Of a DNA stretch of 64,000 nt, positions 48,847-64,000 are shown piece after piece. The stretch is from Micromonospora sicca. Lineage in GTDB: Bacteria > Actinomycetota > Actinomycetes > Mycobacteriales > Micromonosporaceae. The stretch covers positions 1 to 64,000 of the forward strand of contig NZ_QGKS01000346.1 of the NCBI RefSeq assembly GCF_003172935.1, in the 5' to 3' direction. Positions within the stretch are counted from its first letter, which is position 1, and each line of letters starts with the position of its first letter. Both the position numbers and the translations under genes were made by a program. Below the pieces are notes generated by a model that saw nothing but the letters and a program-made list of their open reading frames with translations, was not told where the DNA came from and did not search any database.

Positions 48847-50205
48847 CTAGTTGCTGCCCTCGTCGTGCGGGACGGTGACGGTGACCGTGCAGCCGACCGG
48901 TCGGCCGATCTCGTCGTGGCCGGCGTACGTCAGGTTGTACATCCGGTCCCCGCCGTCTCCGGCCCGTTCCGCCCGTAGCCTGCCGCTCGTGTCCGGCGCG
49001 CCGATGGCAAAGCCACTGACGTCCGCGGCGTCACCCCCGGTCACGCCGGTCAGGGTGAACGCCCTCGGGCCGAGCACACCGTCGCGCAGGTCCACCGTCA
49101 CGGTGACGTCGACCAGTTCGTGGTTCGGCGGCCACAGGACCGGTCGGTCCACCGCACAGTCCAGCTGCCGCACCGGCACCGGGTTGGCGAGGGCTGCGGT
49201 AGCGTGCCCGATGGTCGCGGTGAGTCGGCCGCCGGCCTCGTAGTACATGTGCGCGGTATGGCCGTCGAAGTAGAACGTCGGCGCGGCCGATCGGCCGAGG
49301 TCGGGCCCACCGGGCATCGAGTCGTGCACGATGCCGAGGTGGATCTCCTGGTCGAAGTCTGCTCCGACGTCCACCGCGTGCATGTTGCCGTCGGCAGCGT
49401 GGTAGATCACCAGGTTGCGGTCGTTCCAGCGCAGGAAGAACGGCCCTGAGGCGTTCGGGCCTTCGATGCCCTGCGGGGTCACGATCGGTTCGGGTTGGAT
49501 CGTCCAGGTCCGCGCGTCGTTCGAGACCGCCCAGCGGATCCGCCGGGACACCGGCCCGGTCGGTCCGGGCAGCGCCGCGGTGGGATTGTCCATGAAGAGC
49601 ATCAGGTACCGGGTGCCCAGGCGCGGCACGGATTGCTCGAACACCCGGGCGTAGGAGGTTTCCCCGCCGGTCGTGTCGTCCCGGCTGACCGCAGTGCCGC
49701 CGTAGCTGAAGTGAATGCCGTCGTCGGAGGTGGCGTAGCGGGTGATGGAGTTCTCGCCGTGGAAATAGAGGAACAGCTTGCGCTCGCCCTCGATCCACAC
49801 CGCGTGTGGTGAGGAGACGTGGCTGACCGTGGAGTAGTGCGGCAGCCAGGTGTTGCCGATCAGCGGGTTGGCGGCGTACTCGGTCCACGGACCGTCGATC
49901 GAGTCGGAGTACGCGAGGGCGATCCCGCCGGGACGCTCATGGGGGGCGTAGTACAGGTAGTAGGCGCCGAGCGGGTTCGGGAAGTAGTCGGCGGCCCGGA
50001 TGACACTCGGGAAGATGAACTCGTTGGTCGGATTGTAGGCGAGCGTGCTCTTGTCGAACGCGGTACCGGCGTAGGTGAAGTGCGGGAAGTCGAGTGCCGC
50101 GTCGGCGGTGGCGGGTGCGGTGCCGCCGACGGCGGCGGCGAGCAGGCCCACACCGGCCGCGGCCAGGGCGGCCCGTCGGCGCGGTGAACCGGATGCTCTC
50201 GTCAT
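48847..50205 (-). CDS. Secreted beta-propeller glycosidase-like protein (GH43/GH32-like fold)
   Basis: A 452-residue exported protein. A Tat-like signal (SPRRRAALAAAGVGLLAAAVGG, cleavage near ATADA) is followed by a five-bladed-propeller-type region of about 300 residues. Repeated blade motifs include GAYYLYYAPHE with IALAYSDSIDGPWTEY, KLFLYFHGENSITRYATSDDGIHFSY, IRWAVSNDARTWT, and PTFYFDGHTAHMYYEAGGRLTATIG. The last 90 residues form an Ig-like domain (WPPNHELVDVTVTVDLRDG to TVTVPHDEG) common at the ends of secreted proteins. The exact glycosidase family is not certain. It is divergent from the LacI gene, with three LacI-type operators in between, so it is probably induced with the amino-sugar operon. 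Confidence 0.75.
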   Translation of the reverse strand: MTRASGSPRRRAALAAAGVGLLAAAVGGTAPATADAALDFPHFTYAGTAFDKSTLAYNPTNEFIFPSVIRAADYFPNPLGAYYLYYAPHERPGGIALAYSDSIDGPWTEYAANPLIGNTWLPHYSTVSHVSSPHAVWIEGERKLFLYFHGENSITRYATSDDGIHFSYGGTAVSRDDTTGGETSYARVFEQSVPRLGTRYLMLFMDNPTAALPGPTGPVSRRIRWAVSNDARTWTIQPEPIVTPQGIEGPNASGPFFLRWNDRNLVIYHAADGNMHAVDVGADFDQEIHLGIVHDSMPGGPDLGRSAAPTFYFDGHTAHMYYEAGGRLTATIGHATAALANPVPVRQLDCAVDRPVLWPPNHELVDVTVTVDLRDGVLGPRAFTLTGVTGGDAADVSGFAIGAPDTSGRLRAERAGDGGDRMYNLTYAGHDEIGRPVGCTVTVTVPHDEGSN

Positions 50206-50333
50206 GTCAGCCTTCCTGTGCTGTTCGATGGTGGGAGCGTTCCACCGTGGACGGTGCGGGACGGGCAGCCACACAGGGTGACCGTCGGGGGAAGGGTGGC
50301 GCGGCCGTCGTCGATTCGAGACGACCGATCGAC

Positions 50334-50355
50334 GATGCTAATACGTATTAGCATC
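50334..50355. promoter_or_regulatory. LacI-type operator 1
   Basis: A perfect 22-bp palindrome with core GCTAATACGTATTAGC, 129 bp upstream of the secreted propeller gene. It shares the core CTAATnCGnATTAG with two more sites in the same gap. Confidence 0.8.
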
Positions 50356-50461
50356 AATACCTCTCGAATCTAGCCGCCCACCGGGCGGTCCTGTCAAGAG
50401 GCGTGGTGCCGGCGGCCGACCGACCGGCACAACGATGCCGCAGCTCACCGCCCCCGCGCCC

Positions 50462-50475
50462 CTAATGCGCATTAG
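50462..50475. promoter_or_regulatory. LacI-type operator 2
   Basis: CTAATGCGCATTAG is a perfect 14-bp palindrome. Its centre is 124 bp from operator 1 and 100 bp from operator 3, positions that would allow looping between the two divergent promoters. Confidence 0.78.
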
Positions 50476-50559
50476 TTCAGGGAGTTCATCTCGCCGAAAT
50501 CTCGCTGACAGCTCTTGACACCACACCGCCGGGCGGCCAGGCTACCTGCCAACGCCGCT

Positions 50560-50577
50560 GGCTAATACGCATTAGCC
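50560..50577. promoter_or_regulatory. LacI-type operator 3
   Basis: GGCTAATACGCATTAGCC has one mismatched pair in 18 bp. It lies 19 bp before the lacI start codon, the expected place for repression of the operon and autoregulation. Confidence 0.8.
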
Positions 50578-50596: not shown

Positions 50597-51643
50597 GTGA
50601 CCTCGACCCCCAGACGTGTGACACAGCGTGACATCGCGCGGTTGGCCGGGGTCAGTCAGGCGACGGTCTCCCTGGTGCTCAACAACCGGGCCGACGCCGA
50701 CGTCCGGATCGCGCTGGAAACCCGCGACCGGGTGCTGCGCGTGATCGCGGAGACCGGCTACGCGGCCGATCCCGTCGCCCGCCGGCTCGCCGCCCGGTTC
50801 AACCGGATCATCGGCGTCTTCACCTACGAACCGGCCTTCCCCAGCGGCACCCGGGACTTCTTCCACCCGTTCCTGGTCGGCATCGAGGAGTACGCCGAGC
50901 GAGCCGGCTGTGACCTCCTGCTGTTCACCAGCGCACCGGTGGTCGACGGTCGGCGGCGGATCTTCCACCAGGACAACCGGCTGCGGCTGGCCGACGGGTG
51001 CATCCTGCTGGGCCGCGAGATCGACGCGGCGGAGCTGCACCGGCTCAACCGCGACGGCTACCCGTACATGGCCGTCGGCCGCCGCGACGACGCAGCCGGA
51101 CCGGTCCCCTACGTCGGCGCCGACTACGCGAGCGCCGTGGGTCAGCTCGTCGAGTCGGCCGTCGCCCGCGGGCACCGCCGGCTGGCCTACCTGGGCATGG
51201 GATCGGCCGCCGAGTCCTCCGAGGACCGCCGGCGTGGCTTCGCCGAGTCGGCGCGGGCCGCGGAAAGCGCCGTCCAGCTCTCCACCGCCGGACGCGACGC
51301 CGACGCGGTCCTCGATGACCTGCTCGCCGACCGGACCACCGCCGCCTTCGTCGAGGACTACGCCACCGCGGTGGCGCTGGAGCTGGCCACCCGGAGGCGC
51401 GGGCTGAGCGTGCCCGGCGACCTGTCCGTGCTGACCCTCGGCGACCCGACCGTGGCGGTCCCCACGGAGATCGCCTTCACCGGCTTCCACATCCCGCGCG
51501 AGGAGATGGGCCGGCAGGCGGTCGAGGTGCTGGCCAGTGTGATCGACGGCAGCTCCAGCGGCCTGCAGCAGCGACTTCTCCCCTGCGAACCCGTCGAGGG
51601 CGAGACCCTCGGCACCCCTGATCGGGCGGTCGAGCGCCGCTGA
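50597..51643 (+). CDS. LacI-family repressor of the amino-sugar operon
   Basis: A 348-residue LacI/GalR protein. The N-terminal helix-turn-helix is VTQRDIARLAGVSQATVSLVLNNRADADVRIALETRDRVLRVI (about residues 8-52), followed by a periplasmic-binding-type sensor domain (IIGVFTYEPAFPSGTRDFFHPFLVGIEEYAERAGCDLLLFT) and the late segment TGFHIPREEMGRQAVEVL. The GTG start at 50597 has GGAAGG upstream. It is the first gene of a packed unit that continues, 29 nt later, with the FAD oxidoreductase. The three palindromes upstream are its probable binding sites. Confidence 0.9.
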   Translation: MTSTPRRVTQRDIARLAGVSQATVSLVLNNRADADVRIALETRDRVLRVIAETGYAADPVARRLAARFNRIIGVFTYEPAFPSGTRDFFHPFLVGIEEYAERAGCDLLLFTSAPVVDGRRRIFHQDNRLRLADGCILLGREIDAAELHRLNRDGYPYMAVGRRDDAAGPVPYVGADYASAVGQLVESAVARGHRRLAYLGMGSAAESSEDRRRGFAESARAAESAVQLSTAGRDADAVLDDLLADRTTAAFVEDYATAVALELATRRRGLSVPGDLSVLTLGDPTVAVPTEIAFTGFHIPREEMGRQAVEVLASVIDGSSSGLQQRLLPCEPVEGETLGTPDRAVERR

Positions 51644-51672
51644 GCGGCGACCGCGCAACTGGAAGGAAGCAA

Positions 51673-53277
51673 GTGGCAGTTATGCGTGCGGACGTCCTCG
51701 TCGTCGGCGGCGGGCTCGGCGGCGTCGCGGCGGCCCTCGCCGTAGCCCGCGCGGGCCGGTCGGTGATCCTGACCGAGGAGTTCGACTGGCTGGGCGGGCA
51801 ACTCACCAGCCAGGCCGTCCCGCCGGACGAGCACTCCTGGATCGAGCAGTTCGGCGCCACCGCCAGCTACCGGGCCCTGCGCGCCGGGATCCGCGACTAC
51901 TACCGCCGGCACTACCCGCTGACCGAGCGCTCCCGCGCCTGGACGGACCTCAACCCGGGCGCCGGCTGGGTGAGCCGGCTGTGCCACGAGCCGCGGGTGG
52001 CGGTGGCGGTGATCGAGGAGATGCTGGCGCCGCACCGGGCCTCCGGCCGGCTGACCGTGCTCCAGCCGTACCGGCCGGTCGCGGTGGCCACCGACGGGGA
52101 CGGGGTGGTCGGGGTCACCGTGGCGCACCGGGACCGGGACGACCGGATCGAGATCACCGCGCCGTACACGCTGGACGCCACCGAGACCGGTGAGCTGCTG
52201 CCGCTGTCCGGCACCGAGTACGTCACCGGCTTCGAGTCGCGCGAGCAGACCGGCGAGCCCAGCGCGCCGGCCGAGGTGCAGCCGATGAACATGCAGGCGG
52301 TCTCCGTCTGCTTCGCCCTGGACCACGTCGCCGGCGACCACACCATCGACCGGCCCGCCGGGTACGACTTCTGGCGCGACTACAAGCCCGACTTCTGGGG
52401 CGACCGGCTGCTGTCCTGGCGGTCGCCGCACCCGCGCACGCTGGAGATCGTCGAGCGCAGCTTCACCCCGAACCCGGACGACGACCCGTTGGCCGTCAAC
52501 GCCGACCAGCGGGTCAACCCCGGTGACGGCAACCTGTGGACGTTCCGGCGGATCGCCGCCCGGCGCAACTTCCTCGACGGCACGTACGCCAGCGACATCA
52601 CCCTGGTCAACTGGCCGATGATCGACTACTTCGAGGCCCCGGTCATCGACGTGCCGAACGCCGCCTGGCACCTGTCCAAGGCCCGCGAACTGTCGTACTC
52701 GGTGCTCTACTGGCTGCAGACCGAGGCCCCCCGGCCGGACGGTGGCACCGGCTTCCCCGGGCTGCGGCTGCGCGGCGACGTGACCGGCAGTGCCGACGGC
52801 CTGGCCCAGGCCCCGTACATCCGCGAGTCGCGGCGGATCCGCGCCGAGTACACCGTGGTCGAGCAGGACCTGTCCCTGGCCGTACGCGGCGAGCACGGCG
52901 CGGTCAGCTACCCGGACTCCATCGGCGTCGGGATGTACCGGATCGACCTGCACCCGTCGACCGGCGGCGACAACTACATCGACGTCGGTTCCTGCCCGTT
53001 CGAGATCCCGCTCGGTGCGCTGATCCCGCAGCGGGTGGAGAACCTGCTTCCGGCCGGCAAGAACATCGGCACCACGCACATCACCAATGGCAGCTACCGG
53101 CTGCACCCGGTCGAGTGGAACGTCGGGGAGGTCGCCGGCCTGCTCGCCGACTTCTGTCTGGCGCGGGGCGAGTCTCCGCGCGCGGTCCGCAACACCCCCC
53201 GTCTGCTGGCCGACTTCTCGGACCGCGTCACCGCGGCCGGCGTGGAACCGCGCTGGCCACGGATCGCGGGCTACTGA
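51673..53277 (+). CDS. FAD-dependent oxidoreductase (PF12831-type)
   Basis: A 534-residue flavoprotein. The N-terminal Rossmann dinucleotide motif is VLVVGGGLGGVAAALAVARAG, followed by EEFDWLGGQLTSQAVPPDEHSWIEQFG, the family's conserved active-site-side stretch. PYTLDATETGELLPLSGTEYVTG follows, and the second FAD contact is NLLPAGKNIGTTHITNGSYRLHPVEWNVGEVAGLLA. PF12831 proteins are common in carbohydrate loci but few have known reactions. Here one is the first enzyme gene after lacI and before the transporter, implying oxidation of the imported sugar. The GTG start follows GGAAGGA. No signal peptide, so cytoplasmic. Confidence 0.83.
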   Translation: MAVMRADVLVVGGGLGGVAAALAVARAGRSVILTEEFDWLGGQLTSQAVPPDEHSWIEQFGATASYRALRAGIRDYYRRHYPLTERSRAWTDLNPGAGWVSRLCHEPRVAVAVIEEMLAPHRASGRLTVLQPYRPVAVATDGDGVVGVTVAHRDRDDRIEITAPYTLDATETGELLPLSGTEYVTGFESREQTGEPSAPAEVQPMNMQAVSVCFALDHVAGDHTIDRPAGYDFWRDYKPDFWGDRLLSWRSPHPRTLEIVERSFTPNPDDDPLAVNADQRVNPGDGNLWTFRRIAARRNFLDGTYASDITLVNWPMIDYFEAPVIDVPNAAWHLSKARELSYSVLYWLQTEAPRPDGGTGFPGLRLRGDVTGSADGLAQAPYIRESRRIRAEYTVVEQDLSLAVRGEHGAVSYPDSIGVGMYRIDLHPSTGGDNYIDVGSCPFEIPLGALIPQRVENLLPAGKNIGTTHITNGSYRLHPVEWNVGEVAGLLADFCLARGESPRAVRNTPRLLADFSDRVTAAGVEPRWPRIAGY

Positions 53278-53302
53278 ACCACCACCCCCGGTAGAGGAGA
53301 AC

Positions 53303-54589
53303 ATGGTGACAAGAGGAAAGGGTCCGCGCGGCGTGGCCGTGGCACTGACCGCGGCGCTGGCGCTGGCCGGCTGCGGTGGCGGCGAGAAGGCCGGCTCGGA
53401 CGGTCCCGCGAACCTGCGGATGACCATCTGGTCGGCCAACGAGGCGCACCTCAAGCTGTTCAACGAGATCGCCGACGAATACAAGAAGAGCCACCCGGAC
53501 GTCGGGACGATCACCTTCGACCCGCTGCCGTTCGACAGCTACACCACCACGCTGACCACCCAGATCGCCGGCGGCAACGCCCCCGACCTGGCCTGGATCT
53601 TCGAGAACTCGGCCCCCGACTTCGTCGCCTCCGGCGCGCTGCGGCCGCTGGACGACACGCTGAAGTCCACCGCGGAGTACGGCTACGACGACCTGTCCCC
53701 GGCCACCCGCAAGCTCTGGCAGAACGACGGCAAGCTGTACGCGTACCCATTCTCGACCTCGCCGTTCGGGATCTTCGTCAACACCGACCTGCTCAAGAAG
53801 GCCGGTCAGAAGACCCCGGCCGAGCTGATCGCCGCGGGTCAGTGGACCTGGGACGCCGCGCTGGCCGCCGCCTCCGCGAGCCAGGCGAAGACCGGCAAGG
53901 CGGGGCTGGTGATCCGCGACTTCGACTACAAGGGCTGGGACAACCTGTCCACCTTCTGGACCGGCTGGGGCGCCCGGGCGTGGAGCGAGGACGGGAAGAC
54001 GTGCGGCTTCAACGCGCCGGAGATGGCCGACGCGATGACCACCCTGCACAAGGCGATCTTCACCGACAAGGCGCTGCCCGGACCCGGCACCACCGCCGAC
54101 TTCTTCGCCGGTGACGCGGCCATGACGGTCACCCAGATCTCCCGCGCCTCGCTGCTGAAGGACGGTGGCTTCGGCTGGGACCTGGTCCCGCTGCCGGCCG
54201 GCCCGAAGGGGAACTACGCGGTGATCGGCCAGGCCGGCATCGGAGTGCTGAAGAAGAGCCCGCACGCCAAGGCCGCCGCGGACTTCCTCGCCTTCCTGAC
54301 CAACCCCACCAACTCGGCGAAGCTGGCCCAGTTCTTCCCGCCGCCCCGGCAGTCGCTGCTGACCGCCGAAACGCTCGCGAAGACCAACCCGAAGCTCAAG
54401 CCGGAGCAGCTCCAGAAGGTCGTCATCGACGGCATCACCAGCGGCGTGGTCAAGCCCAGCCACGCCGGGCAGGCCGAGCTGAGCCAGCAGGTACGCGCCG
54501 GACTGGACCCGCTGTGGCAGCCGAACGCGGACGTCAAGGCGGTGCTGGACGGCGTCTGCGCCAAGATCCAGCCGCTGCTGGCGAAGTAA
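53303..54589 (+). CDS. Sugar ABC transporter substrate-binding lipoprotein
   Basis: A 428-residue family 1 solute-binding protein with a lipoprotein signal: basic start MVTRGKGPRG, hydrophobic core and lipobox LALAGC. The fold segments LRMTIWSANEAHLKLFNEIADEYKKSHP, TQIAGGNAPDLAWIFENSAPDFVASGALRPLDD and KLYAYPFSTSPFGIFVNTDLLKKAG are typical. It captures the substrate of the lacI operon, probably an N-acetylmannosamine-containing or related amino sugar given the kinase and epimerase downstream. GAGGAG lies 5-6 nt before the ATG. Confidence 0.9.
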   Translation: MVTRGKGPRGVAVALTAALALAGCGGGEKAGSDGPANLRMTIWSANEAHLKLFNEIADEYKKSHPDVGTITFDPLPFDSYTTTLTTQIAGGNAPDLAWIFENSAPDFVASGALRPLDDTLKSTAEYGYDDLSPATRKLWQNDGKLYAYPFSTSPFGIFVNTDLLKKAGQKTPAELIAAGQWTWDAALAAASASQAKTGKAGLVIRDFDYKGWDNLSTFWTGWGARAWSEDGKTCGFNAPEMADAMTTLHKAIFTDKALPGPGTTADFFAGDAAMTVTQISRASLLKDGGFGWDLVPLPAGPKGNYAVIGQAGIGVLKKSPHAKAAADFLAFLTNPTNSAKLAQFFPPPRQSLLTAETLAKTNPKLKPEQLQKVVIDGITSGVVKPSHAGQAELSQQVRAGLDPLWQPNADVKAVLDGVCAKIQPLLAK

Positions 54590-54591
54590 CC

Positions 54592-55539
54592 ATGTCCCGG
54601 ACGGACACCAGGGTGGGTCGGGTCGAGGCCCGGCCCACCCCGGCCCGGTCACGGCCGTACTGGACCGCCCGCCGCCGCGACCAGCTCACCGGCTACCTGT
54701 TCATCGCCCCGCAACTGCTCGGCAGCGTCGTCTTCGTGATCCTGCCGCTGCTCCTAGTCGTCTGGTACAGCCTGCACGAGTGGAACGTGCTCGCCGACAC
54801 CTTCGACTTCGTGGGCGCCGACAACTACACCGCCCTCGCCGACGATCCCAACCTCGGCCCGGTGCTGCGGGCCACCGGACTCTTCTCCGTCGGCCTGGTG
54901 GTATTCAACCTCAGCCTGGCGTTGCTGCTCGCCGTCCTGCTCAACCAGAAGCTGCAGGGCACCATCGTCTTCCGCACCCTGTTCTTCTCCCCCGTGGTCG
55001 TCTCCCTGGTCGCCTGGACCATCGTGTGGGGCTTCCTGCTGCAGGACAACGGCGGACTGAACGGCCTGCTCGACACGATCGGCGTGGACGGGCCCAACTG
55101 GCTGCGTGGCGAGGGCACCGCAATGCTGTCGGTCATCGTGGTGCAGGTGTTCAAGAACGTCGGCCTGAACATGGTGCTGTTCCTGGCCGCGCTCCAAGGC
55201 GTACCGGCGGAGCTGTACGAGGCCGCCGAGGTGGACGGGGCGAGCCGGATGCGCCAGTTCTGGCGGATCACCGTGCCGCTGATCAGCCCGACGATCCTGC
55301 TCACCTCGATCATCACTGTGGTCGGCTCGCTGCAGGTCTTCGCGCAGATCGCGGTGCTCACCCAGGGCGGACCCGGCACCTCGACCACGGTGCTCGTCTA
55401 CTACCTCTACCAGCAGGCATTCCAGTTCCACCACTTTGGCTACGGCGCCACGCTGTCGATCGTGCTGTTCGTCATCGTGCTCGCGCTCACCGTGCTGCAG
55501 TGGCAGATGCGCAAGAGATGGGTCTTCCATGAATCGTGA
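54592..55539 (+). CDS. Sugar ABC transporter permease (MalF type)
   Basis: A 315-residue permease with six predicted helices after a basic, Pro-rich N-terminus. The EAA loop is ELYEAAEVDGASRMRQFWRITVPLISPTI. The start is 2 nt after the binding-protein stop. It pairs with the next permease. As in the other sugar operon, no dedicated ATPase is encoded, consistent with use of a shared MsiK-like subunit. Confidence 0.9.
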   Translation: MSRTDTRVGRVEARPTPARSRPYWTARRRDQLTGYLFIAPQLLGSVVFVILPLLLVVWYSLHEWNVLADTFDFVGADNYTALADDPNLGPVLRATGLFSVGLVVFNLSLALLLAVLLNQKLQGTIVFRTLFFSPVVVSLVAWTIVWGFLLQDNGGLNGLLDTIGVDGPNWLRGEGTAMLSVIVVQVFKNVGLNMVLFLAALQGVPAELYEAAEVDGASRMRQFWRITVPLISPTILLTSIITVVGSLQVFAQIAVLTQGGPGTSTTVLVYYLYQQAFQFHHFGYGATLSIVLFVIVLALTVLQWQMRKRWVFHES

Positions 55540-56371
55540 CCTGTCGCCCCGAACCAAGCTGGCGCTCTACGGGGCGCTGCTGATCCTGGCGATCCCGTTC
55601 GTCTTCCCGACCTGGTGGATGGTCACCTCGTCGTTGAAGCCGGTGGCGGACATCTTCGCTTTCCCGCCGCAGCTCCTGCCGGTCAACCCGCGGCTCGATG
55701 CCTACCGGCGGGTGTTCGAGTTGCAGCCGTTCGGCCGGCAGTACCTCAACAGCCTCTACATCGCGCTGGTGGTCACGCTTGGCACCCTGGGCGTGTCGGC
55801 ACTGGCCGGGTACGCCTTCGCGCGCATCCGGTTTCGCGGCCAGAACCTTTTGTTCCTGGTCGTCCTCGCGGGCCTGCTCATCCCCAGCGAGGTGACGATC
55901 GTGCCGCTGTTCCAGATGTTCTTCAAGCTTGGCCTGGTCAACACCCACTGGCCGCTGATCCTGGTACCGATCTTCGGCGCGCCGAGCGTGTTGGCGACGT
56001 TCATCATGCGGCAGTTCTTCATCAGCCTTCCCGGCGAGTTGGAGGAGGCGGCCCGGGTCGACGGGCTTGGCCGCTTTGCCACCTTCTGGAAGATCGCGCT
56101 GCCGCTGTCGCGCCCCGCACTGGGCGCGGTGGCCATCTTCACCTTCCTGCACAGCTGGAATCTCTACCTGGAACCGATCGTGTTCCTCTCCTCCCCGGAG
56201 AAGTTCACCCTGCCTCAGGCGCTCACCCAGTTCGTCGACGCCTACGGCGGTCCGATGTGGGACGTCCAACTCGCTGCGGCGTCGATGACCGCGCTGCCGG
56301 TCCTGGTGGTCTTCGTCATCGCCCAGAAGCAGTTCGTCGAGGGCCTCGCGCACGCCGGTCTCAAAGGATGA
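55529..56371 (+). CDS. Sugar ABC transporter permease (MalG type)
   Basis: A 280-residue permease. The EAA loop reads ELEEAARVDGLGRFATFWKIALPLSRPAL. TWWMVTSSLKPVADIFAFPPQLLP near the N-terminus is the usual MalG-type start. The ATG at 55529 overlaps the upstream gene by 11 nt and its stop overlaps the ROK kinase start by 4 nt (ATGA), showing tight coupling. Confidence 0.9.
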   Translation: MNRDLSPRTKLALYGALLILAIPFVFPTWWMVTSSLKPVADIFAFPPQLLPVNPRLDAYRRVFELQPFGRQYLNSLYIALVVTLGTLGVSALAGYAFARIRFRGQNLLFLVVLAGLLIPSEVTIVPLFQMFFKLGLVNTHWPLILVPIFGAPSVLATFIMRQFFISLPGELEEAARVDGLGRFATFWKIALPLSRPALGAVAIFTFLHSWNLYLEPIVFLSSPEKFTLPQALTQFVDAYGGPMWDVQLAAASMTALPVLVVFVIAQKQFVEGLAHAGLKG

Positions 56372-57279
56372 CGGCATCGGCACCCCTGATCGGCCTCGAC
56401 ATCGGCGGCACCAAGACGGCGGCGGCCCTGATCGGCCCTGACGGGGACGTGCTCGAGCGCCGTCAGGTGCCCACGCCCGCCCGGTCGGGGCCCGAGGCCG
56501 TGCTGGACGCCGCCGCGCTGCTGGCCGCGGACCTGCTCGACGCGGCCGGTAGCGGACCGGTCGGGGTAGGCACCGCCGGCACGGTCGACCCGGCGACCGG
56601 CACCATCCGGTATGCCACCGACAGCCTGCCCGGCTGGACCGGCACTCCTGTCGCCCACGCCCTGGCCGAGCGCCTCGCCCGCCCCGTTCTGGTCACCAAC
56701 GACGTGAACGCCGCCGCGCTGGGCGAATGCTGGTCCGGCGCGGGGCGGGCCAGGACACACCTGCTGCTTGTCTCGATCGGCACCGGCCTGGGCGCGGCAA
56801 TCATCCGTAACGGCCGCATCGAGGCCGGCGCTCGCGGCGGCGCCGGCGAGGTGGGCCACCTGCCGGTCCCGAGTGCCGAACGGTTGCGCTGCGGGTGTGG
56901 CCGGTACGGGCACCTGGAGGCGATCGCCTCAGGCAGGGGGCTGTCCGCCGCGTACGTCGTGGAGACCGGCGCGCGCGTCACCGGACAGGCCGTAGCGCAA
57001 CGCGCGGCGGCGGGGGACGCCGTCGCGCAGCAGGTCCTGGACCGGGCCGGCACTGTCCTCGGCACGGCCCTGGCGGGGTTGGTGGCCCTGCTCGATCCGC
57101 AGGCCGTCCTGGTGGCGGGTGGTGCGGCCGGCGCCCTGCTGCCCGCCGCGTCGGCCGCCTACTCGGCCGAACTGCCGGCCGGATGGGCCGACGTGCCTCT
57201 GCTGCCAGCCGCCCTCGGAGCCGACGCGGTCGTGGTAGGCGCGGTCCGCCTGGCCATGACACACACCGGTGAGCAGTGA
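56368..57279 (+). CDS. ROK-family sugar kinase (probable N-acetylmannosamine kinase)
   Basis: A 303-residue ROK kinase without a DNA-binding domain. It has the ATP motif LIGLDIGGTKTAAALI, the catalytic Asp in VTNDVNAAALGE, SIGTGLGAAIIRNGRI, the EVGHLPV substrate motif and the zinc motif CGCGRYGHLEAIASGRGL. ROK kinases phosphorylate glucose, ManNAc, GlcNAc or allose. The NanE-like gene next to it makes N-acetylmannosamine the best guess, giving ManNAc-6-phosphate. Confidence 0.85.
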   Translation: MTASAPLIGLDIGGTKTAAALIGPDGDVLERRQVPTPARSGPEAVLDAAALLAADLLDAAGSGPVGVGTAGTVDPATGTIRYATDSLPGWTGTPVAHALAERLARPVLVTNDVNAAALGECWSGAGRARTHLLLVSIGTGLGAAIIRNGRIEAGARGGAGEVGHLPVPSAERLRCGCGRYGHLEAIASGRGLSAAYVVETGARVTGQAVAQRAAAGDAVAQQVLDRAGTVLGTALAGLVALLDPQAVLVAGGAAGALLPAASAAYSAELPAGWADVPLLPAALGADAVVVGAVRLAMTHTGEQ

Positions 57280-57319
57280 CGGTGCGAGCCGTCCCGGCAC
57301 CGACGAAGGGACCAGACAG

Positions 57320-58027
57320 GTGAGTGTGCTCGACGACCTGGCCGGCGGGCTGGTGGTGTCCTGCCAGCCGCTGCCCGACGAGCCGGATGACCCGATGCGG
57401 GACCCGTACGTTCAGGGCCGGGTGGCCGCCGCGGTGGTGCGGGGCGGCGCGGTGGCGGTCCGGGCCAACGGACCGGCCGACATCAGGGCTATCCGTGCCG
57501 TGCTCGACGTGCCGGTGATCGGGTTGTATAAGCACGGCACGGATGACATCTTCATCACCCCGACGGCGGCCCACGCGCTCGAGGTGGCCTGGGCCGGGGC
57601 AGACATCATCGCTGTCGACGCCACCGACCGTCCCCGTCCAGACGGGCGAAGCTTCGCCGACACGGTCCGGACGATCCGCGAGCGGACCGACGCACTGGTC
57701 CTGGCCGACGTCTCCACCACGGCAGAGGGCGTCGCCGCCGTCAAGGCAGGTGCAGACGCGGTCGCCACCACGCTGTCCGGCTACACCCTGGCCAGCCCCC
57801 AGACTGACGGGCCCGACCTAGGGCTCGTGGCGCGACTCGTCGCACTGCTACCGGTTCCGGTGATCGCCGAAGGGCGGTACCGCACCAAGGAGCAGATCGG
57901 CCGGGCCTTCGAGGCGGGTGCGCACGCGGTGGTGATGGGCAACGCCGTCACCTCACCGCTGTGGATCACCCGCCGGCTCGTGCCGGCCACCCCCCGCGCG
58001 GCGAGCGCCCCGAAAAAGAGGGAGTGA
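57320..58027 (+). CDS. nanE: N-acetylmannosamine-6-phosphate 2-epimerase
   Basis: A 235-residue TIM-barrel epimerase, converting ManNAc-6-P to GlcNAc-6-P. Family signatures are GLVVSCQPLPDEPDDPMRDP, VIGLYKHGTDDIFITPT (catalytic Lys), ADIIAVDATDRPRPDG, ADVSTTAEGVAAVKAGADAVATTLSGYT and VPVIAEGRYRTKEQ (catalytic Glu). The GTG at 57320 is chosen because AAGGGA lies 8 nt upstream and the length then fits; an alternative GTG at 57269 overlaps the kinase gene. The next gene starts 2 nt after its stop. No NanA lyase is visible, so sialic acid itself need not be the substrate. Confidence 0.9.
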   Translation: MSVLDDLAGGLVVSCQPLPDEPDDPMRDPYVQGRVAAAVVRGGAVAVRANGPADIRAIRAVLDVPVIGLYKHGTDDIFITPTAAHALEVAWAGADIIAVDATDRPRPDGRSFADTVRTIRERTDALVLADVSTTAEGVAAVKAGADAVATTLSGYTLASPQTDGPDLGLVARLVALLPVPVIAEGRYRTKEQIGRAFEAGAHAVVMGNAVTSPLWITRRLVPATPRAASAPKKRE

Positions 58028-58029
58028 GC

Positions 58030-59670
58030 ATGAGAAGACGTACCCTCCTGGCCACCGGCATGGCCGGGCTGACCAGCGTGGCCGTCGGCCGACCCGCATT
58101 CGCCGGGCCCGCCAACCGGCAGCTGACCGTGGCACTGGTCCCGTTGGACGACCGGCCGGTCAACACCTACGCCCCGCAGATGACCGCAGCGAGCGCCGGC
58201 GCCCAGGTGCAGCTGCCGCCGCGGGAACTGCTGGGCCGCTTCTTCACCCCCGGCGACGGCGCGGCCATCGCCCGCTGGCTCGGCGCCACCGACGACGTCG
58301 ACGGGTACGTGATCTCGGTCAGCATGCTCGCCTACGGCGGTTTGATCGCCTCACGCACCGCCGCCCCGACCCTGGCGGCCGCGCTGGAGAATTTGGCCGC
58401 GATCCGACACCTGCGCTCCACCCGGCCGGGGGCGGTGATCGAGGTGCACGACACCATCCAGCGGCTCGCCATCACCAGCACGGGCACCGACCTGGACAAG
58501 TACCGGGCGCTGCTGGTCGAGTGGGCCAAGCTCTACGACCAGGTGGTCAACCTCGGGCAGGAGGAGCTGCGGGCCCGTCTCGACGCCGTCCGGGCGCAGA
58601 TTCCGGACCAGGTGGTCGAGGACTACCTCGCCGCGCGGGCCCGCAACCACCAGGTCAACCGGCTGATGGTCGAGTGGGTCGCCGACGGCACCATCACCCA
58701 CCTCGTGCTCTCCGAAGACGACACCGCGCCGGTCGGCCTGGCCCGGGCGGAGCGGGTCGAGCTGGAGGAGCTGGTGGCCCAGCTCGGCGTCGGCGACCGG
58801 GTGGAGATCTTCCCCGGCGCCGACGAGGTCGACGCGCTGCTGGTCGCGCGGGTGGTCGCCGCGGGCACGGCGCCCAGCTACCGGGTGGAGTACGCCGGTG
58901 TCTCGGGCGAGGACTGGACCGCCCAGCTGGAGGGCATCCCGTTCGCGGAGAACATTCGTCGGCATGTGACCGCCGTGGGTGGACGGGTAGTGGACGGCGA
59001 CGCGGACATCGTGCTCGCCGTGAACACCCCTTCGGCGGCGCCCGCGCAGCGGGCCGCGGACCTGGACGCCTTCGTCGGGCGGATCGGCGGGCTGCTGGCC
59101 GCCGGCACCCCGGTGATCGTGGTGGACCCGCTGATCGTGAACAAGGCGGACCACGAACTGGTCGCTCGGATGGAGGCCCGCCTGGACCTCACGGCGCTGC
59201 TGTCGTATTCGGGATGGAACACCGGGGGCAACGCACTCGGTCTGGCGCTCGGTCACGGCACCGCCCGCTGGGCCCACCTTCGCTCCTCCGGCAACGGGTA
59301 CGGCGTGCCCGATCTGCGCGGGCCTGGCCAGGTGCACGCCGAGTACCTGCTCTACCGGTTCGTCAAGGACGACTCGTGGAAGAACGTGGTGCAGGTCGAG
59401 GCGTACGCGCACGCGCGGGCCCGGGGCTGGGACCCACTCGCGCTGACCCCCGAGCAGAAGAGCTACTTCGACGGCTGGGTACGCGACCGGCTGGTGCCGC
59501 TGACCGAGCGGTACTTCGCCGACCACTTCGCCGGACACCGCGTCGTGCTGGGCCGGCGGGGCGCAAAGACGTTCACCGCGACCCTGGCGCGCTTCGAGTC
59601 GGCCCGGGTCGAGCTGCCGTGGGACCGGCTCTTCGAGGTGATCCTGGAGCCCCGGCTGCAGCTGTCCTGA
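58030..59670 (+). CDS. Exported DUF4127-family protein
   Basis: A 546-residue protein of the DUF4127 family, whose function is unknown. An N-terminal Tat-like signal (MRRRTLLATGMAGLTSVAVG, cleavage near AFA-GP) is followed by the hallmark VALVPLDDRPVNTYAPQMTAASAG. VDGYVISVSMLAYGGLIASR, GTITHLVLSEDDTAPVGLARAER, VIVVDPLIVNKADHELV and LLSYSGWNTGGNALGLALGHGTARW are also characteristic. Conserved Asp, His and Ser in these blocks suggest an enzyme. It is translated immediately after nanE, so it belongs to the amino-sugar pathway, yet the signal peptide places it outside the membrane, where it could process the sugar before uptake. Confidence 0.83.
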   Translation: MRRRTLLATGMAGLTSVAVGRPAFAGPANRQLTVALVPLDDRPVNTYAPQMTAASAGAQVQLPPRELLGRFFTPGDGAAIARWLGATDDVDGYVISVSMLAYGGLIASRTAAPTLAAALENLAAIRHLRSTRPGAVIEVHDTIQRLAITSTGTDLDKYRALLVEWAKLYDQVVNLGQEELRARLDAVRAQIPDQVVEDYLAARARNHQVNRLMVEWVADGTITHLVLSEDDTAPVGLARAERVELEELVAQLGVGDRVEIFPGADEVDALLVARVVAAGTAPSYRVEYAGVSGEDWTAQLEGIPFAENIRRHVTAVGGRVVDGDADIVLAVNTPSAAPAQRAADLDAFVGRIGGLLAAGTPVIVVDPLIVNKADHELVARMEARLDLTALLSYSGWNTGGNALGLALGHGTARWAHLRSSGNGYGVPDLRGPGQVHAEYLLYRFVKDDSWKNVVQVEAYAHARARGWDPLALTPEQKSYFDGWVRDRLVPLTERYFADHFAGHRVVLGRRGAKTFTATLARFESARVELPWDRLFEVILEPRLQLS

Positions 59671-59749: not shown

Positions 59750-61090
59750 TCAGCCCGCGCGGCCGAGGCCGCCACCGCCGGTCGCGCCCTCCTCCCGCGC
59801 CTCGGCGGCGACCGGCCCCCGCCGTCCCGCCTCGCGCAGATCGTCCAGCAGCAGGTCGATCAACCGCTCCTCCATCACCGCGCGCCCGGCACGGCGCATC
59901 ACGTCGGACAACGTGGGGTCCCAGGGCGTCCGGGCGGGGGCGCCGAGCAGGGCCGTACCGGACACCGCCGCGGTCTCGTACTCGGTCGTGGTCATCCGCC
60001 ATGGAACCGCCGTCGGGTAGCGCTCGAGGGCCGCGGCGGTCAGCCGTACGCCCGTCCAGTCGAGGTCGTTGCGCCACCGGATCATTGCGCCGTGCGCTGA
60101 GCGCAGCAGGGCGTGCACCGCCACCGAGGGCGTGCCTTCGGTGCAGAGCAGCGGCGGCGCCTGCGCGCCGAGCGCGGCGGTGGCGGCCCGAAGCACGGCC
60201 GGGTTCTCGCAGACGAAGATCTCGTCGCAGGTCAGCGTGAGCGGGGCGAGGCGGAGCTGGTGCAGGGTGATCCGCATCGGCACGCCCGCGTCCGCGGCCT
60301 CGGTCAGCCACCGTCCCAGCAGGCCGCCGCTGGCGGGCAGGTTGAGTACCAACACCTGGCTGGCGAGGTCGTCGGGGACCAGCCCCACGGATTCCCACAG
60401 AGCCCGTTCGGGCTCCCCGCCGGTGGGCACGGGCACCTGCTGCCAGGCGGCGAGGGCCCGCAGCACGAGCCCGCGCAGCGGACCCTCGGCAAGGGCCTTC
60501 GTGTCGTCGAGCACCCGGTCGGCAAAGACCGGGATCGGCTCGTCCGGCGCAGGCAGTGCGTCGAGCACTCGCAGTACGTCGCGGAACGGCAGCCCGGCCC
60601 GGATGGCGCGGGTGAGGGTGCCGTCGCGGCGTAGGCCGTCGAGCCAGTCGGCGTACCAGACGGCGGCGGCGTGCCGGCTCTCCCGGGCGAGGGTGAGCAG
60701 GCCGTCCCGAGCCCTTGCCTCGCGCTCCGCCTCGGCGGGCCGGTTGCGCAGCGGGACCGTCGCGGAGAGCAGGTCGAGCAGGCCCACCCCGTGGACCGCT
60801 CGAAGCTGGTCGTCCACGTCGGCGAGTCGCACGCTGAGCCGCGCCGACCCGGCGGACCGGTGGGCACCGGTGATCCCGATGATCACCACCCGTTCTTCGT
60901 CGTTGGGGGCGGTCAGGGTTACGGCGACGTCGAGTCGTCCACCGGTGCGCTCGAGGCTGCGCCGGGCGGCCGTCAGCAGCCGCCGCCAGCCCGGGTCGTC
61001 GGGCAGCCGCCGCCAGCCTGGGTCGGACTGGGCCGCCGGCCGGCTGGCGGGGTCGGCCTGGTCGGTTGGCGGCTGCGGGCGCACGCTCAT
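59750..61090 (-). CDS. jetD: Wadjet type II nuclease subunit JetD (TIGR02679/DUF2399)
   Basis: A 446-residue TIGR02679-type protein. The C-terminal DUF2399 (Toprim-like) half has the acidic residues expected of the nuclease: Glu near 292 in FVCENPAVLRAA and the DxD near 341 in RNDLDWTGVRLTAAAL. In Wadjet systems the JetABC condensin complex extrudes DNA loops and JetD cuts closed circular plasmids. The ATG at 61090 overlaps the JetC stop (ATGA). The disordered, Arg/Gly-rich end after residue 420 is not conserved-looking. jetA and jetB should lie beyond the window edge. Confidence 0.87.
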   Translation of the reverse strand: MSVRPQPPTDQADPASRPAAQSDPGWRRLPDDPGWRRLLTAARRSLERTGGRLDVAVTLTAPNDEERVVIIGITGAHRSAGSARLSVRLADVDDQLRAVHGVGLLDLLSATVPLRNRPAEAEREARARDGLLTLARESRHAAAVWYADWLDGLRRDGTLTRAIRAGLPFRDVLRVLDALPAPDEPIPVFADRVLDDTKALAEGPLRGLVLRALAAWQQVPVPTGGEPERALWESVGLVPDDLASQVLVLNLPASGGLLGRWLTEAADAGVPMRITLHQLRLAPLTLTCDEIFVCENPAVLRAATAALGAQAPPLLCTEGTPSVAVHALLRSAHGAMIRWRNDLDWTGVRLTAAALERYPTAVPWRMTTTEYETAAVSGTALLGAPARTPWDPTLSDVMRRAGRAVMEERLIDLLLDDLREAGRRGPVAAEAREEGATGGGGLGRAG

Positions 61091-64000
61091 TCGTCGGCAA
61101 GGTCGAGGACGAGCTCGGACAGGTCAACGGGGTCGGTGGTGCCCGGCGTGCGGCGGGTCTCCGGCGAGCCGAGCGCGCGGGCCAGCGTCCCGTCGAAGTC
61201 GGCGACGTTGACCGAGCCGTCCCACACGAGCAGCAGGGTGGAGACCGTGTGCTCGACTGTGGAGTGGGACAGGTCGTAGTGCGCCGCGCCGCTGACCGCC
61301 GGATGGGTGGCCCACAGGTCGTACCCGGTCATGAACAGGTCCAGGTCGAACTGCTTCGCCAGCGCCATCAGCTCGCCGCGGCCGGTGTCGTCCACCCCGG
61401 CGAACGCCTCGTCCAGGCCGAGCAGGCGGGGCGCGTTCGGCCGGGCCGAGCCGAACAGGGCGTTGGCGGCGGCGAACAGCGGCAGGTGCAGCGACACCGA
61501 CTGTTCGCCACCGGAGAGCTGGCTGTGCCGGGCCCGGGTCAGGGCCTCGGTGCCGCCGCCGGGCCGGTGCAGGGTGAAGGCGAAGGTGCGCCACTGCCGG
61601 TAGTCGAGCACCTCACCCAGCAGTTCCCGGTACGGCCGCTCGGGGTGCATCGCCCGGGCCGCCTTGATCCGGGCGGCGAAGTGCCGGCGCATGGTGGTGA
61701 GCTGCGCCGGCCCCAGCCGGGCCGGATCCCGTTCCAGCAGCTTGCAGACCTCCCGCTGCTCAGCGTCGAGGTCGTCGGCGAGCCGCCAGCCGACGCCGAC
61801 GGTGAGCCCGGAGGACATCCGGCGGGCCCGCATCTGGGTGTCCATCGCCCCCACCAGGTCACGGGCCTCGATGGTGCGGTGGTGGATCTGCCGGGCGAGC
61901 TGGCCGAGCAGCGCGTCCTCCAGCACCCGCTGCTCGGCATCGGTGAGCAGCTGTTCCTGGTCGCGTCGCTCGCGGGCGATCCGGTCGGCGAAGTGCGCCA
62001 CCGGGGTGAGCCCCTGCTCGTCGACGACACGGACGACGATGACCCCGTCGTCGGTGTCCCACTCGGGCCGCTGGTCGAGCCCGGCCGCCGGCAGCTGCGC
62101 CTGCAGCTCGGTCAGCGCGGTGGTGAGGCGGGTGGCGCTCTGCTTGAGGGAGGTCTCGGTCGGACTGAGCTCCCGGGTGGCGGCGAGGATCGCCTCGTGC
62201 AGAGCGGTCACCTGCGGGTCCAGGTCCGAGCCGGGTCCGTCGTCGGTCGTCCGGGCCGGCCACCGCAGCTCCGTCGCGCAGCGCAGCAGCCCCAGCAGGT
62301 CCGGTCGGGCGTACGGGCGCAGCCGCAACGCGTCGTGGTGCGCCTCGGCCACCGCCGCGGCGACGGCCTGCTCGCTCAGCTCCACCCGGGTCACCGCGGC
62401 GGCCCGCCGCTGCTGGGCGGCACCCAGTTCGGTCCGGGCCCGCTCGACAGCGGCCTCCGCGTCGATGATCTCGTCGGCGGTACGCGCCACGTCGGCCAGC
62501 ACCCGTTCCGCCTCGGCACCGACGCTGGCCCGCAGCGTCCGGTACGCCTCGGCCTTCTCCCGGTGCCGGTCGGTCGCGGTGTGCTCGGCATCCTCGGCGG
62601 CGGCGAGCCGCTCGACCGCCTCGTCGTGGCGCTGCTGCGCCTGCGCCTCCTGTTCGGCGGCGCGGGCGGCGGCTGGGCGGGCGCTCTCCAGCCGTACCCC
62701 CCGCTTCTCGAATCGGTCCACGGCGTCGGCGGTGGCGTCCAGGCGGTCCAGCGGGAGGGACCGCTCCGCGGTGACCCGGCGCAGCGCGGCGGCGGCCGCG
62801 GCCCGCTCGGCCAGCGCCTGGTCCAGGCGCACGTTCGCCGCGGCCCCGGACTCCTGCCGGGCCCGCAGCGTGACCGCCGCCCGGTCCAGTTCGCGCAGCG
62901 CGGTGTGGATCGGGGTGAGAGGCGGCAGCTGCCCGGCGGCGGCCGCCACGGCGGCCAGCAGCCGCTCGATCGCGGACCGCTCCTCGTCGAGGGTGCGCAG
63001 CTCGGCGTCCAGCGCGGCGCGCTGCCGGTCGCACTCGGCGATCCGGGCGGCGCGCCGGGCCGCCCGGGCGGTCGCGCCGATGTACTCGCAGCGGTCCTTG
63101 GCGAACCGGCCGACGCCGACGCCCTGGGCGTAACGACCGTCGACACCGACCGTCACCGCCGCGGTGGACTGTGCGTCGACCACGTCGGCCAACGCCACCG
63201 AGGCGAGGACGTCGCGGATCCGTTCGGCGGGCACCTCGTCCTGGTCTTCGCAGACCAGCACGTCGGCGAGGGTGGCGCCGGCCGGACGCCGGTCCGGTGG
63301 GAGGGGCAGCAGGTAGCCGTCCAGGTCGTCGCCGGCCAGCGCGTCCGCGGCGGCGTCCGGGTCCGGGTGCAGCCAGGCGTCCAGCAGGCCGGCGGCGTGC
63401 AGGGCCGCCTCGACGGCCGCGGCGTCGGCGCCGGGCACCGCCTCGGCGAAGCGGACCAGCCGCCACAGGGGTGCGCCGGGCCGGCCGGCGCGCGGGGCGG
63501 GACGGGTCACCGGGGTCGGCGGCGCGTCGTCCTGTTCGGCGGCGATCCGGTCCCGTTCCGCCGCGAGTTCGGCCCGGCGGTCGGCCAACGCCGTGCGGCC
63601 GGCGGTCAGCTCTGCGAGCCGGTCGCGATGCCGGGCGACGGCGGAAGCGGTGGCTTCGGCGTACACCTCCCGCAGGGTCGGGGCGCCGGGCTCGCCGGCG
63701 GCGTCGACGGCGGCGGCCAGCACGGCCGGCAGGTCCGGCCGGTCGAGGTGGGGCAGCAGTGCGTCGTTGTCCTGCGCCCACCGGCTGACGCTGGCGCGCA
63801 CCCGCGTGCGGGCTTCCGCGAGGACGCTTTCGGCGCGCTGCTCAGCCTGCTCGGCCTCGGTGAGCGCGTCGGCGGCGCCGGCCGCGTCGGCGGCCGCCCG
63901 GGTGTGGTCACGTTCGGCCTGGGCGTGCCGGGCCGCCTGCTCGCGCACGGCGCGCACGTCGTCGCGGCGGGCGCCGGAGCGGGCGGCGAGCCGCGCGGGA
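61087..64000 (-). CDS. jetC: Wadjet type II SMC-like ATPase JetC (TIGR02680), partial at window edge
   Basis: The C-terminal 970 or so residues of an SMC/MukB-like ATPase; the N-terminus with Walker A lies beyond position 64000. Long Ala/Arg/Glu-rich coiled coils fill most of the visible part, with a hinge-like segment around PLWRLVRFAEAVPGADAAAVEAALHAAGLLDAWL. Near the end are the ABC signature QLSGGEQSVSLHLPLFAAANALF and Walker B PRLLGLDEAFAGVDD. It forms the loop-extruding motor with JetA and JetB. Overlap with jetD shows an operon. Type II is assigned from the TIGR02679 partner and the sequence character. Confidence 0.87.
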   Translation of the reverse strand, partial: PARLAARSGARRDDVRAVREQAARHAQAERDHTRAAADAAGAADALTEAEQAEQRAESVLAEARTRVRASVSRWAQDNDALLPHLDRPDLPAVLAAAVDAAGEPGAPTLREVYAEATASAVARHRDRLAELTAGRTALADRRAELAAERDRIAAEQDDAPPTPVTRPAPRAGRPGAPLWRLVRFAEAVPGADAAAVEAALHAAGLLDAWLHPDPDAAADALAGDDLDGYLLPLPPDRRPAGATLADVLVCEDQDEVPAERIRDVLASVALADVVDAQSTAAVTVGVDGRYAQGVGVGRFAKDRCEYIGATARAARRAARIAECDRQRAALDAELRTLDEERSAIERLLAAVAAAAGQLPPLTPIHTALRELDRAAVTLRARQESGAAANVRLDQALAERAAAAAALRRVTAERSLPLDRLDATADAVDRFEKRGVRLESARPAAARAAEQEAQAQQRHDEAVERLAAAEDAEHTATDRHREKAEAYRTLRASVGAEAERVLADVARTADEIIDAEAAVERARTELGAAQQRRAAAVTRVELSEQAVAAAVAEAHHDALRLRPYARPDLLGLLRCATELRWPARTTDDGPGSDLDPQVTALHEAILAATRELSPTETSLKQSATRLTTALTELQAQLPAAGLDQRPEWDTDDGVIVVRVVDEQGLTPVAHFADRIARERRDQEQLLTDAEQRVLEDALLGQLARQIHHRTIEARDLVGAMDTQMRARRMSSGLTVGVGWRLADDLDAEQREVCKLLERDPARLGPAQLTTMRRHFAARIKAARAMHPERPYRELLGEVLDYRQWRTFAFTLHRPGGGTEALTRARHSQLSGGEQSVSLHLPLFAAANALFGSARPNAPRLLGLDEAFAGVDDTGRGELMALAKQFDLDLFMTGYDLWATHPAVSGAAHYDLSHSTVEHTVSTLLLVWDGSVNVADFDGTLARALGSPETRRTPGTTDPVDLSELVLDLADE

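What the first reader, a model, noticed from the sequence alone, without database searches (positions are those of the whole stretch)
50597..59670. Amino-sugar operon pairing a FAD oxidoreductase and an exported DUF4127 protein with NanE and a ROK kinase
Eight genes are packed with gaps of at most 40 nt or overlaps: LacI, PF12831 oxidoreductase, three ABC subunits, ROK kinase, NanE, DUF4127. NanE and the kinase define a ManNAc-to-GlcNAc-6-P route, but there is no sialate lyase and no obvious glycosidase in the operon. Instead there are a flavoprotein of unknown reaction and a Tat-exported protein of unknown function. This suggests an undescribed way of releasing ManNAc (or an oxidised amino sugar) from a glycoconjugate, with extracellular DUF4127 and intracellular oxidation.
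Basis: partly seen in the sequence, partly recalled or inferred. Interest (0 to 1): 0.72.

Follow-up and report, generated by a model that had tools for sequence, protein, structure and literature searches.

The report
Amino-sugar regulon with unknown DUF4127 enzyme
A soil actinomycete carries one tightly regulated gene set that probably cuts an N-acetylmannosamine-containing sugar polymer outside the cell, imports the piece and burns it, using a widespread protein family (DUF4127) whose job is not known and which looks like an unrecognised sugar-cutting enzyme.

Summary
The eight genes are there as described. In this 7.9-Mb genome, NanE, full-length PF12831 and DUF4127 each occur once, all here. 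The pairing recurs: of 95 distinct DUF4127 loci, 34 have both a PF12831 protein and NanE (or an unnamed TIM-barrel-like protein, TIM6) within 9 kb, 12 only the latter, 5 only PF12831, 44 neither (Fisher 1e-10, but a tree-aware test was not significant). It shares the intergenic region that holds the genome's only three copies of the operator CTAATRCGYATTAG. DUF4127 relatives are exported, some with F5/8C domains, or cytosolic. Three PTS-type loci have DUF4127 and NanE but no flavoprotein, where a phospho-glycosidase would be expected. Best reading: DUF4127 cleaves a ManNAc/HexNAc glycan; kinase and NanE finish the job; the flavoprotein is auxiliary. Reaction and substrate are unproven. The library searched holds no paper that mentions DUF4127 or PF13552.

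The parts
48847..50274 (-). Secreted protein with a predicted beta-propeller of glycoside-hydrolase type (GH130/GH43/GH117-like fold), divergent partner of the operon
   Evidence: No Pfam family over cut-off (best PF04616 15.3 bits, cut-off 32.2); AF2 pLDDT 72.7; Foldseek 72 PDB matches at E<=0.001; VIA Z 27.6 to 5mt2, 27.4 to mannobiose phosphorylase 5b0p; homologues in DUF4127 loci of Haloactinopolyspora, Oceanitalea and three Bacillus-type loci
50337..50352 (.). Operator O1 GCTAATACGTATTAGC, on the propeller-gene side
   Evidence: Perfect palindrome; core found only 3 times in the 7.88-Mb genome; relaxed core 3 times in the window, shuffles mean 0.13
50461..50476 (.). Operator O2 CCTAATGCGCATTAGT
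50561..50576 (.). Operator O3 GCTAATACGCATTAGC, 20 nt before lacI, downstream of a TTGACA box at 50515-50520
   Evidence: TTGACA read by eye; the consensus scan reported no promoter
50597..51643 (+). LacI-family regulator
   Evidence: PF00356 and PF13377 over cut-off
51673..53277 (+). PF12831 FAD-dependent oxidoreductase, no signal seen, reaction unknown (ATG at 51682 is an alternative start)
   Evidence: 350.8 bits; only full-length PF12831 in the genome
53303..54589 (+). ABC sugar-binding lipoprotein
   Evidence: PF01547; lipobox-like LALAGC by eye
54592..55539 (+). ABC permease (UgpA/MalF type)
   Evidence: PF00528; best NCBIfam names, below their cut-offs
55529..56371 (+). ABC permease (UgpE/MalG type)
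   Evidence: PF00528; best NCBIfam names, below their cut-offs
56368..57279 (+). ROK-family sugar kinase, probably HexNAc kinase
   Evidence: PF00480 205 bits; below the ManNAc-kinase cut-offs
57269..58027 (+). NanE, ManNAc-6-phosphate 2-epimerase
   Evidence: PF04131, PRK01130 over cut-off; the profile of 11 NanE including this one matches solved NanE 4utt over positions 4-222 of 231, E 1.9e-83
58030..59670 (+). DUF4127 protein with export signal, proposed glycan-cleaving enzyme
   Evidence: PF13552 450 bits; AF2 pLDDT 84.6; 15 polar residues kept in 93% or more of 97 sequences

Best explanation
One LacI-controlled regulon for a ManNAc-containing (or other HexNAc) glycan that is not sialic acid. 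Outside the cell, the propeller protein and DUF4127 cut the glycan; DUF4127 is proposed to be an unrecognised glycoside hydrolase or lyase family. The ABC importer takes up the released sugar or short oligosaccharide. Inside, ROK phosphorylates the amino sugar, NanE turns ManNAc-6-P into GlcNAc-6-P, and NagA, encoded elsewhere, continues. The flavoprotein makes an auxiliary change to the imported sugar; which one is open. Shown here: gene content, single-copy status, shared operators, recurrence, predicted folds and conserved residues. Inferred: LacI binding to the operators, every reaction (the NanE step by family membership), the order of steps, and the substrate.
For: Operators: the core CTAATRCGYATTAG occurs 3 times in the genome, all between the propeller gene and lacI; O1 and O3 are present in 14 of 14 same-genus loci fetched with the propeller gene upstream (at least one strain was fetched twice, L041 = L066). 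In two species whose DUF4127 stands away from the operon (L074, fetched also as L045, and L080) the same core lies about 380 and 50 nt before DUF4127. NanE, full-length PF12831 and DUF4127 are each single in the genome; one NagA over cut-off lies on another contig. Recurrence: 34/5/12/44 table; the NanE label needs at least 10 changes on the DUF4127 tree. Glycosidase-type neighbours: GH20, GH84 and GH3, nagZ, GH38 and GHL10. DUF4127 as a glycan enzyme: fused to F5/8C domains in two relatives checked; exported in some lineages and without signal in others, which fits a cofactor-free cutter; beside NanE in PTS-type loci without flavoprotein; conserved D40, R42, R109, R145, D231, D265, D366, N397, T398, N401, R533, E536.
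Against: No reaction of DUF4127 is known, and its model matches no solved fold convincingly. 44 of 95 distinct loci have neither flavoprotein nor NanE/TIM6 nearby, and 30 of 40 Bacillota loci lack NanE/TIM6. The tree-aware pair test for flavoprotein against NanE/TIM6 was not significant (median p 0.125). In the window the exported DUF4127 and the signal-less flavoprotein cannot meet the same substrate at once. The kinase is below ManNAc-kinase cut-offs. Of 12 NanE stretches taken from Bacillota genomes with a TIM6 operon, 11 have no DUF4127. The Deinococcus locus has no NanE match. No ManNAc polymer was identified.
Confidence: 0.45

Rival explanations
1. Oxidation-dependent cleavage: the flavoprotein oxidises a ring hydroxyl of the imported glycoside and DUF4127 eliminates or hydrolyses the keto-glycoside, like known 3-keto-glycoside systems.
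For: Gene association of DUF4127 with PF12831 proteins, including PF12831 proteins only 21-25% identical to the window's one. Comparable dehydrogenase plus eliminase systems exist (abstract and section list of PMC10628242 seen).
Against: Here DUF4127 has an export signal while the flavoprotein has none; three PTS-type loci have DUF4127 and NanE without a flavoprotein; 12 of 95 loci have NanE/TIM6 but no flavoprotein.
Confidence: 0.2
2. Sialic-acid-like catabolism with a non-homologous lyase: DUF4127 or the flavoprotein frees ManNAc from a nonulosonic acid.
For: NanE and ROK as in nan clusters; no nanA in the operon. Published survey: nanE in 421 of 1,969 actinobacterial species but a clustered pathway in 257 (passages of PMC8754123), so many nanE genes are without a lyase beside them.
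Against: No sialidase among the operon proteins; hexosaminidase-type families, GH38 and GHL10 are the recurrent neighbours; DUF4127 fused to F5/8C domains points to polymer work.
Confidence: 0.12
3. DUF4127 is a cell-envelope remodelling or other non-catabolic enzyme that was recruited to sugar operons; the link to NanE is secondary.
For: A clade of 16 DUF4127 without NanE or TIM6 nearby, 15 from the Bacillota sample and one (L063) from the window's phylum; two of them (L176, L178) have a PF12831-type gene nearby. One of these loci (L176) has a NamZ exo-muramidase.
Against: NanE- or TIM6-linked copies occur in several separate parts of the tree.
Confidence: 0.15

Closest known systems
Canonical sialic acid (nan) catabolic cluster nanA-nanK-nanE
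   Same: ROK kinase, NanE, importer, leading to GlcNAc-6-P and NagA
   Different: No nanA in the operon; PF12831 flavoprotein, DUF4127 and the propeller protein instead
GH130/GH43/GH117 five-bladed propeller glycosidases and phosphorylases
   Same: Predicted fold of 48847-50274: VIA Z 23.5-27.6 over 246-284 residues in the 50 rows shown; some family labels recalled
   Different: 9-18% identity in those rows; no Pfam GH family over cut-off
3-keto-glycoside oxidation/elimination systems (PMC10628242)
   Same: An oxidoreductase gene paired with a gene for a possible glycoside-cleaving enzyme
   Different: No sequence comparison was made; flavoprotein missing in some loci; the pair is predicted to lie in different compartments here
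PTS disaccharide operons with 6-phospho-glycosidase (recalled kind)
   Same: Carnobacterium and Enterococcus DUF4127-NanE loci have PTS and HAD genes
   Different: DUF4127 stands where a known glycosidase would be expected

Membership tests
NanE (PF04131 / PRK01130) | Curated score cut-offs | tested here: met
   157.2 (cut-off 27) and 243.1 (189) bits
NanE (PF04131 / PRK01130) | Catalytic Lys and Glu (identity of these residues recalled) | tested here: met
   K88 and E201 invariant in 11 NanE of DUF4127 loci and aligned with K and E of 4utt
ManNAc kinase NanK (NF003461, NF047821) | Curated score cut-offs | tested here: not met
   141.3 (cut-off 283) and 127 (450) bits; it is a ROK protein (PF00480 205 bits)
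Canonical sialic acid catabolic cluster | nanA, nanK and nanE within 10 ORFs (definition in PMC8754123) | tested here: not met
   No lyase among the eight operon proteins or the divergent gene; the flanking genes further out were not all typed
PF12831 FAD_oxidored | Gathering score | tested here: met
   350.8 bits, cut-off 27
PF13552 DUF4127 | Gathering score | tested here: met
   449.8 bits, cut-off 27
GH43 (PF04616) for 48847-50274 | Gathering score | tested here: not met
   15.3 bits, cut-off 32.2
GH130 for 48847-50274 | Family model score | tested here: inconclusive
   No GH130 family reported at E<=5, where HMMER's filters drop most weak matches, but mannoside phosphorylases of this kind are among the best fold matches
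Five-bladed beta-propeller glycosidase fold | Structural match over the domain | tested here: met
   Predicted model only: Z 27.6, rmsd 3.1, 284 aligned to 5mt2; pLDDT 72.7; blade number taken from the matched families, not counted
Glycoside hydrolase or lyase (for DUF4127) | Glycan-cleaving activity | not testable with these tools
   Indirect genomic evidence only
3-keto-glycoside eliminase systems | Homology to characterised dehydrogenase and eliminase families | not tested
   Sequences of those enzymes were not compared

The most novel reading that the evidence does not exclude
DUF4127 is a new family of carbohydrate-active enzymes, present in about 15% of the Bacillota genomes sampled (53 of 348), that frees ManNAc (or ManNAc-6-P) from a ManNAc-containing cell-envelope polymer; it explains part of the nanE genes that stand without sialate lyase, and TIM6 is a second, unrelated epimerase-like enzyme for the same kind of step.
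Probability: 0.3. Interest if true: 0.75.

Novelty: new variant of a known kind. Interest (0 to 1): 0.62.

Why it matters
It gives a testable function to a protein family with no described role in the library searched (searches found no paper), offers an explanation for nanE genes that are not part of sialic acid clusters, and points to a bacterial ManNAc polymer as food. The operators make the whole regulon easy to test in a non-pathogenic actinomycete.

Tried and rejected
Sialic acid cluster: rejected as membership, nanA is missing from the operon. TIM6 as a relative of NanE: profile comparison gave probability 7.5% and only partial HisA-like hits at E about 0.1; left unproven. TIM6 as a strict replacement for NanE: 17 of 20 TIM6 genomes searched have a NanE match over cut-off somewhere; in that table 14 have an unbroken match of 200 bits or more and one (G702) a match with a stop inside, so TIM6 is not a genome-wide substitute; a 21st locus (L105) was not held.

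S-layer wall polymer (pyruvylated ManNAc, recalled) as the substrate: tested through CsaB in 348 genomes of the same sample; 251 have it over cut-off, so it does not discriminate; no conclusion, and no count of overlap with DUF4127 was made.

Fold of DUF4127: Foldseek gave no PDB match at E<=0.001; the VIA second look gave best Z 8.7 over 112 residues, close to what unrelated models reach; fold left open. Viral contigs for the propeller gene: no relative. Paper searches: PF12831 gave one paper, a flavoproteome list (listing only); NanE with FAD oxidoreductase and ABC transporter gave one pneumococcal genome paper (listing only); ManNAc with secondary cell wall polymer and catabolism gave none. 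Some gene calls by my own scripts are too short at the N-terminus; signals were judged by eye on extended frames. The operator was not found in Oceanitalea (L082), which has the same divergent arrangement.
Full report
Observation. The eight genes lie at the stated place, on one strand, with gaps of at most 38 nt or overlaps of 4-11 nt, and match the named families over Pfam's cut-offs. The genome has 7,881,248 bases in 541 contigs; it is probably a Micromonospora, because the 12 best loci and one further, 13 in all at 88-92% DUF4127 identity, come from that genus (inference). DUF4127, NanE and a full-length PF12831 protein (its other 22 rows cover at most the first 145 of 416 positions) each occur once in the genome, all in this operon. 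One NagA over its cut-off lies on another contig.

A missed member. The divergent gene 48847-50274(-) encodes a protein with a signal-like start and no Pfam family over cut-off. Its model (pLDDT 72.7) is rich in beta strands and its best solved matches are propeller glycosidases and phosphorylases: Foldseek E down to 1.4e-8, VIA Z 27.6 (5mt2, rmsd 3.1, 284 aligned) and 27.4 (mannobiose phosphorylase 5b0p, rmsd 2.6, 266 aligned), with GH43 and GH117 entries within about 4 Z units, so the family cannot be told. The 322-bp region between it and lacI holds three palindromes, GCTAATACGTATTAGC and variants, at 50337, 50461 and 50561. The core CTAATRCGYATTAG occurs three times in the whole genome, all here; the control pattern has no match. 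Twenty loci were scanned before lacI: the first and third sites are in all 14 same-genus loci that carry the propeller gene there (L041 and L066 are one strain); L040 and L042, same genus without the gene, keep similar sites; L046 and L076 have one related palindrome each; L133 and L058 have none of this type. Oceanitalea (L082) has the divergent arrangement without this motif. In Micromonospora musae (L074; L045 is the same contig) and M. costi (L080) DUF4127 stands away from the operon, and the same core lies about 380 and 50 nt before it: an independent sign that DUF4127 belongs to this regulon. LacI therefore very probably controls both divergent units (inference). Propeller homologues lie inside the operon in Haloactinopolyspora (L133), upstream in Oceanitalea (L082) and downstream of DUF4127 in three Bacillus-type loci (L100, L101, L117).

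Recurrence. Of these 79, a PF12831-type protein lies within 9 kb of DUF4127 in 46, NanE in 21, TIM6 in 35, NanE or TIM6 in 54, ROK in 24 (78 of 79 yielded a DUF4127 long enough to count). In the phylum of a Bacillus genome (Bacillota, Clostridia included) 53 of 348 genomes have DUF4127, 52 over the cut-off; I chose 40 stretches from that list, from 36 genomes: flavoprotein in 13 of 40, NanE in 6, TIM6 in 4, ROK in 10. In the window's phylum 7 of 396 genomes have DUF4127, in its family 41 of 300, the own genome counted both times. After collapsing at 75% identity, keeping the richest member of each cluster, and dropping L143, which was fetched through NanE, 95 remain: 34 with flavoprotein and NanE/TIM6, 5 flavoprotein only, 12 NanE/TIM6 only, 44 neither; Fisher p 1.1e-10. 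That p ignores kinship: on the tree the pair test gave a median p of 0.125 for flavoprotein against NanE/TIM6, and 0.016 for kinase against NanE. NanE-linked copies need at least 10 label changes on the tree, so the link is not one clade (quick tree with some long branches). In the opposite direction, of 12 NanE stretches from genomes reached through TIM6 loci, one (L143) has DUF4127.

Neighbours. A second operon type, in the window's own family (L050-L055) and in another actinomycete (L062), holds SBP, permeases, ROK, DUF4127, flavoprotein, NanE and GH38, with GHL10 in 6 of these 7. GH20 follows DUF4127 in three Streptomyces loci, L076-L078. Bacillota loci add GHL10, GH84, GH3, GH20, RpiR and acetyl esterase. 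A Deinococcus plasmid has nagZ, a GH20-like gene, permeases, flavoprotein and DUF4127 but no NanE match in the stretch. GHL10 is the family that I recall for DigH, a hydrolase of denuded peptidoglycan (abstract of PMC12288456 seen; the Pfam link is recalled). Three PTS-type loci have DUF4127 and NanE, and a profile search finds no flavoprotein in the 14-19 kb held: Priestia (two ROK, manA, esterase, PTS IIC, RpiR, and a GH38 match), Carnobacterium (HAD, PTS IIC, RpiR) and an Enterococcus plasmid (lactose/cellobiose-type IIA, HAD). There DUF4127 stands where a phospho-glycosidase is expected (inference).

DUF4127 itself. Relatives in the window's clade, in Streptomyces and in many Bacillaceae begin with export signals; those of the second type, Evansella and the Bacillota loci L143, L155, L157 and L159 begin at the domain itself, so they should be cytosolic (judged by eye and, by hydrophobicity). 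Two checked relatives carry C-terminal F5/8C domains. Across 97 sequences D40, R42, D231, D265, D366, T398, N401 and R533 are kept at 100% (rounded), and S108, R109, R145, N397 and E536 at 96-99%. An enzyme that works on either side of the membrane with an ABC or a PTS importer is most simply a cofactor-free glycan-cutting enzyme (inference). The model is good (pLDDT 84.6) but has no convincing solved match.

Flavoprotein. Seven Bacillota PF12831 proteins aligned are 21-25% identical to the window's one, while those of L143, L158 and L187 begin like it (GGQLTSQ). A role on the same pathway is likely; the reaction is open.

Literature. Neither DUF4127 nor PF13552 appears in the library searched. 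A survey of actinobacterial sialic acid catabolism counts nanE in 421 of 1,969 species and clustered pathways in 257 (passages seen); the surplus of nanE is what this module could partly explain. That pneumococcal NanR, an RpiR regulator, binds ManNAc-6-P was seen in a search listing (PMC12713135).

Verdict. A real, conserved regulon, probably for a ManNAc/HexNAc glycan other than sialic acid, with an uncharacterised and widespread protein at its centre. Mechanism inferred, substrate unknown.

Noticed in passing
59750-61090 (-) and 61087-63957 (-): Convergent with DUF4127: JetD and JetC of a Wadjet-type anti-plasmid system (PADLOC 363 and 793 bits; TIGR02679 over, TIGR02680 just under its cut-off); the JetC match starts at profile position 455, so the gene probably runs past the window end.
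   Followed up: partly
L089:6114-6815 and 35 further loci of L039-L142: TIM6, a family of about 230 aa without Pfam match over cut-off, probably a TIM barrel, beside DUF4127 and often a flavoprotein in Bacilli and some MAGs of other phyla, usually without NanE in the operon.
   Followed up: partly
L097, L102, L103, L124, L135, L137, L170: DUF4127 loci with a hydantoinase-A-like ATPase and a GntP-like permease and no ABC permease match nearby; reaction unexplained.
   Followed up: no
L160-L169, L171-L173: Bacillota DUF4127, most with signal-like starts, without NanE, TIM6 or ABC sugar genes nearby; function may differ.
   Followed up: partly
L086:12156-19660: Second DUF4127 operon in a Neobacillus with NanE, a xylose-isomerase-like protein and an aminoglycoside-acetyltransferase-family protein.
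   Followed up: no
L056-L058: Paired DUF4127 genes with an unnamed secreted protein of 522-527 aa; the one of L056 has no Pfam match.
   Followed up: no
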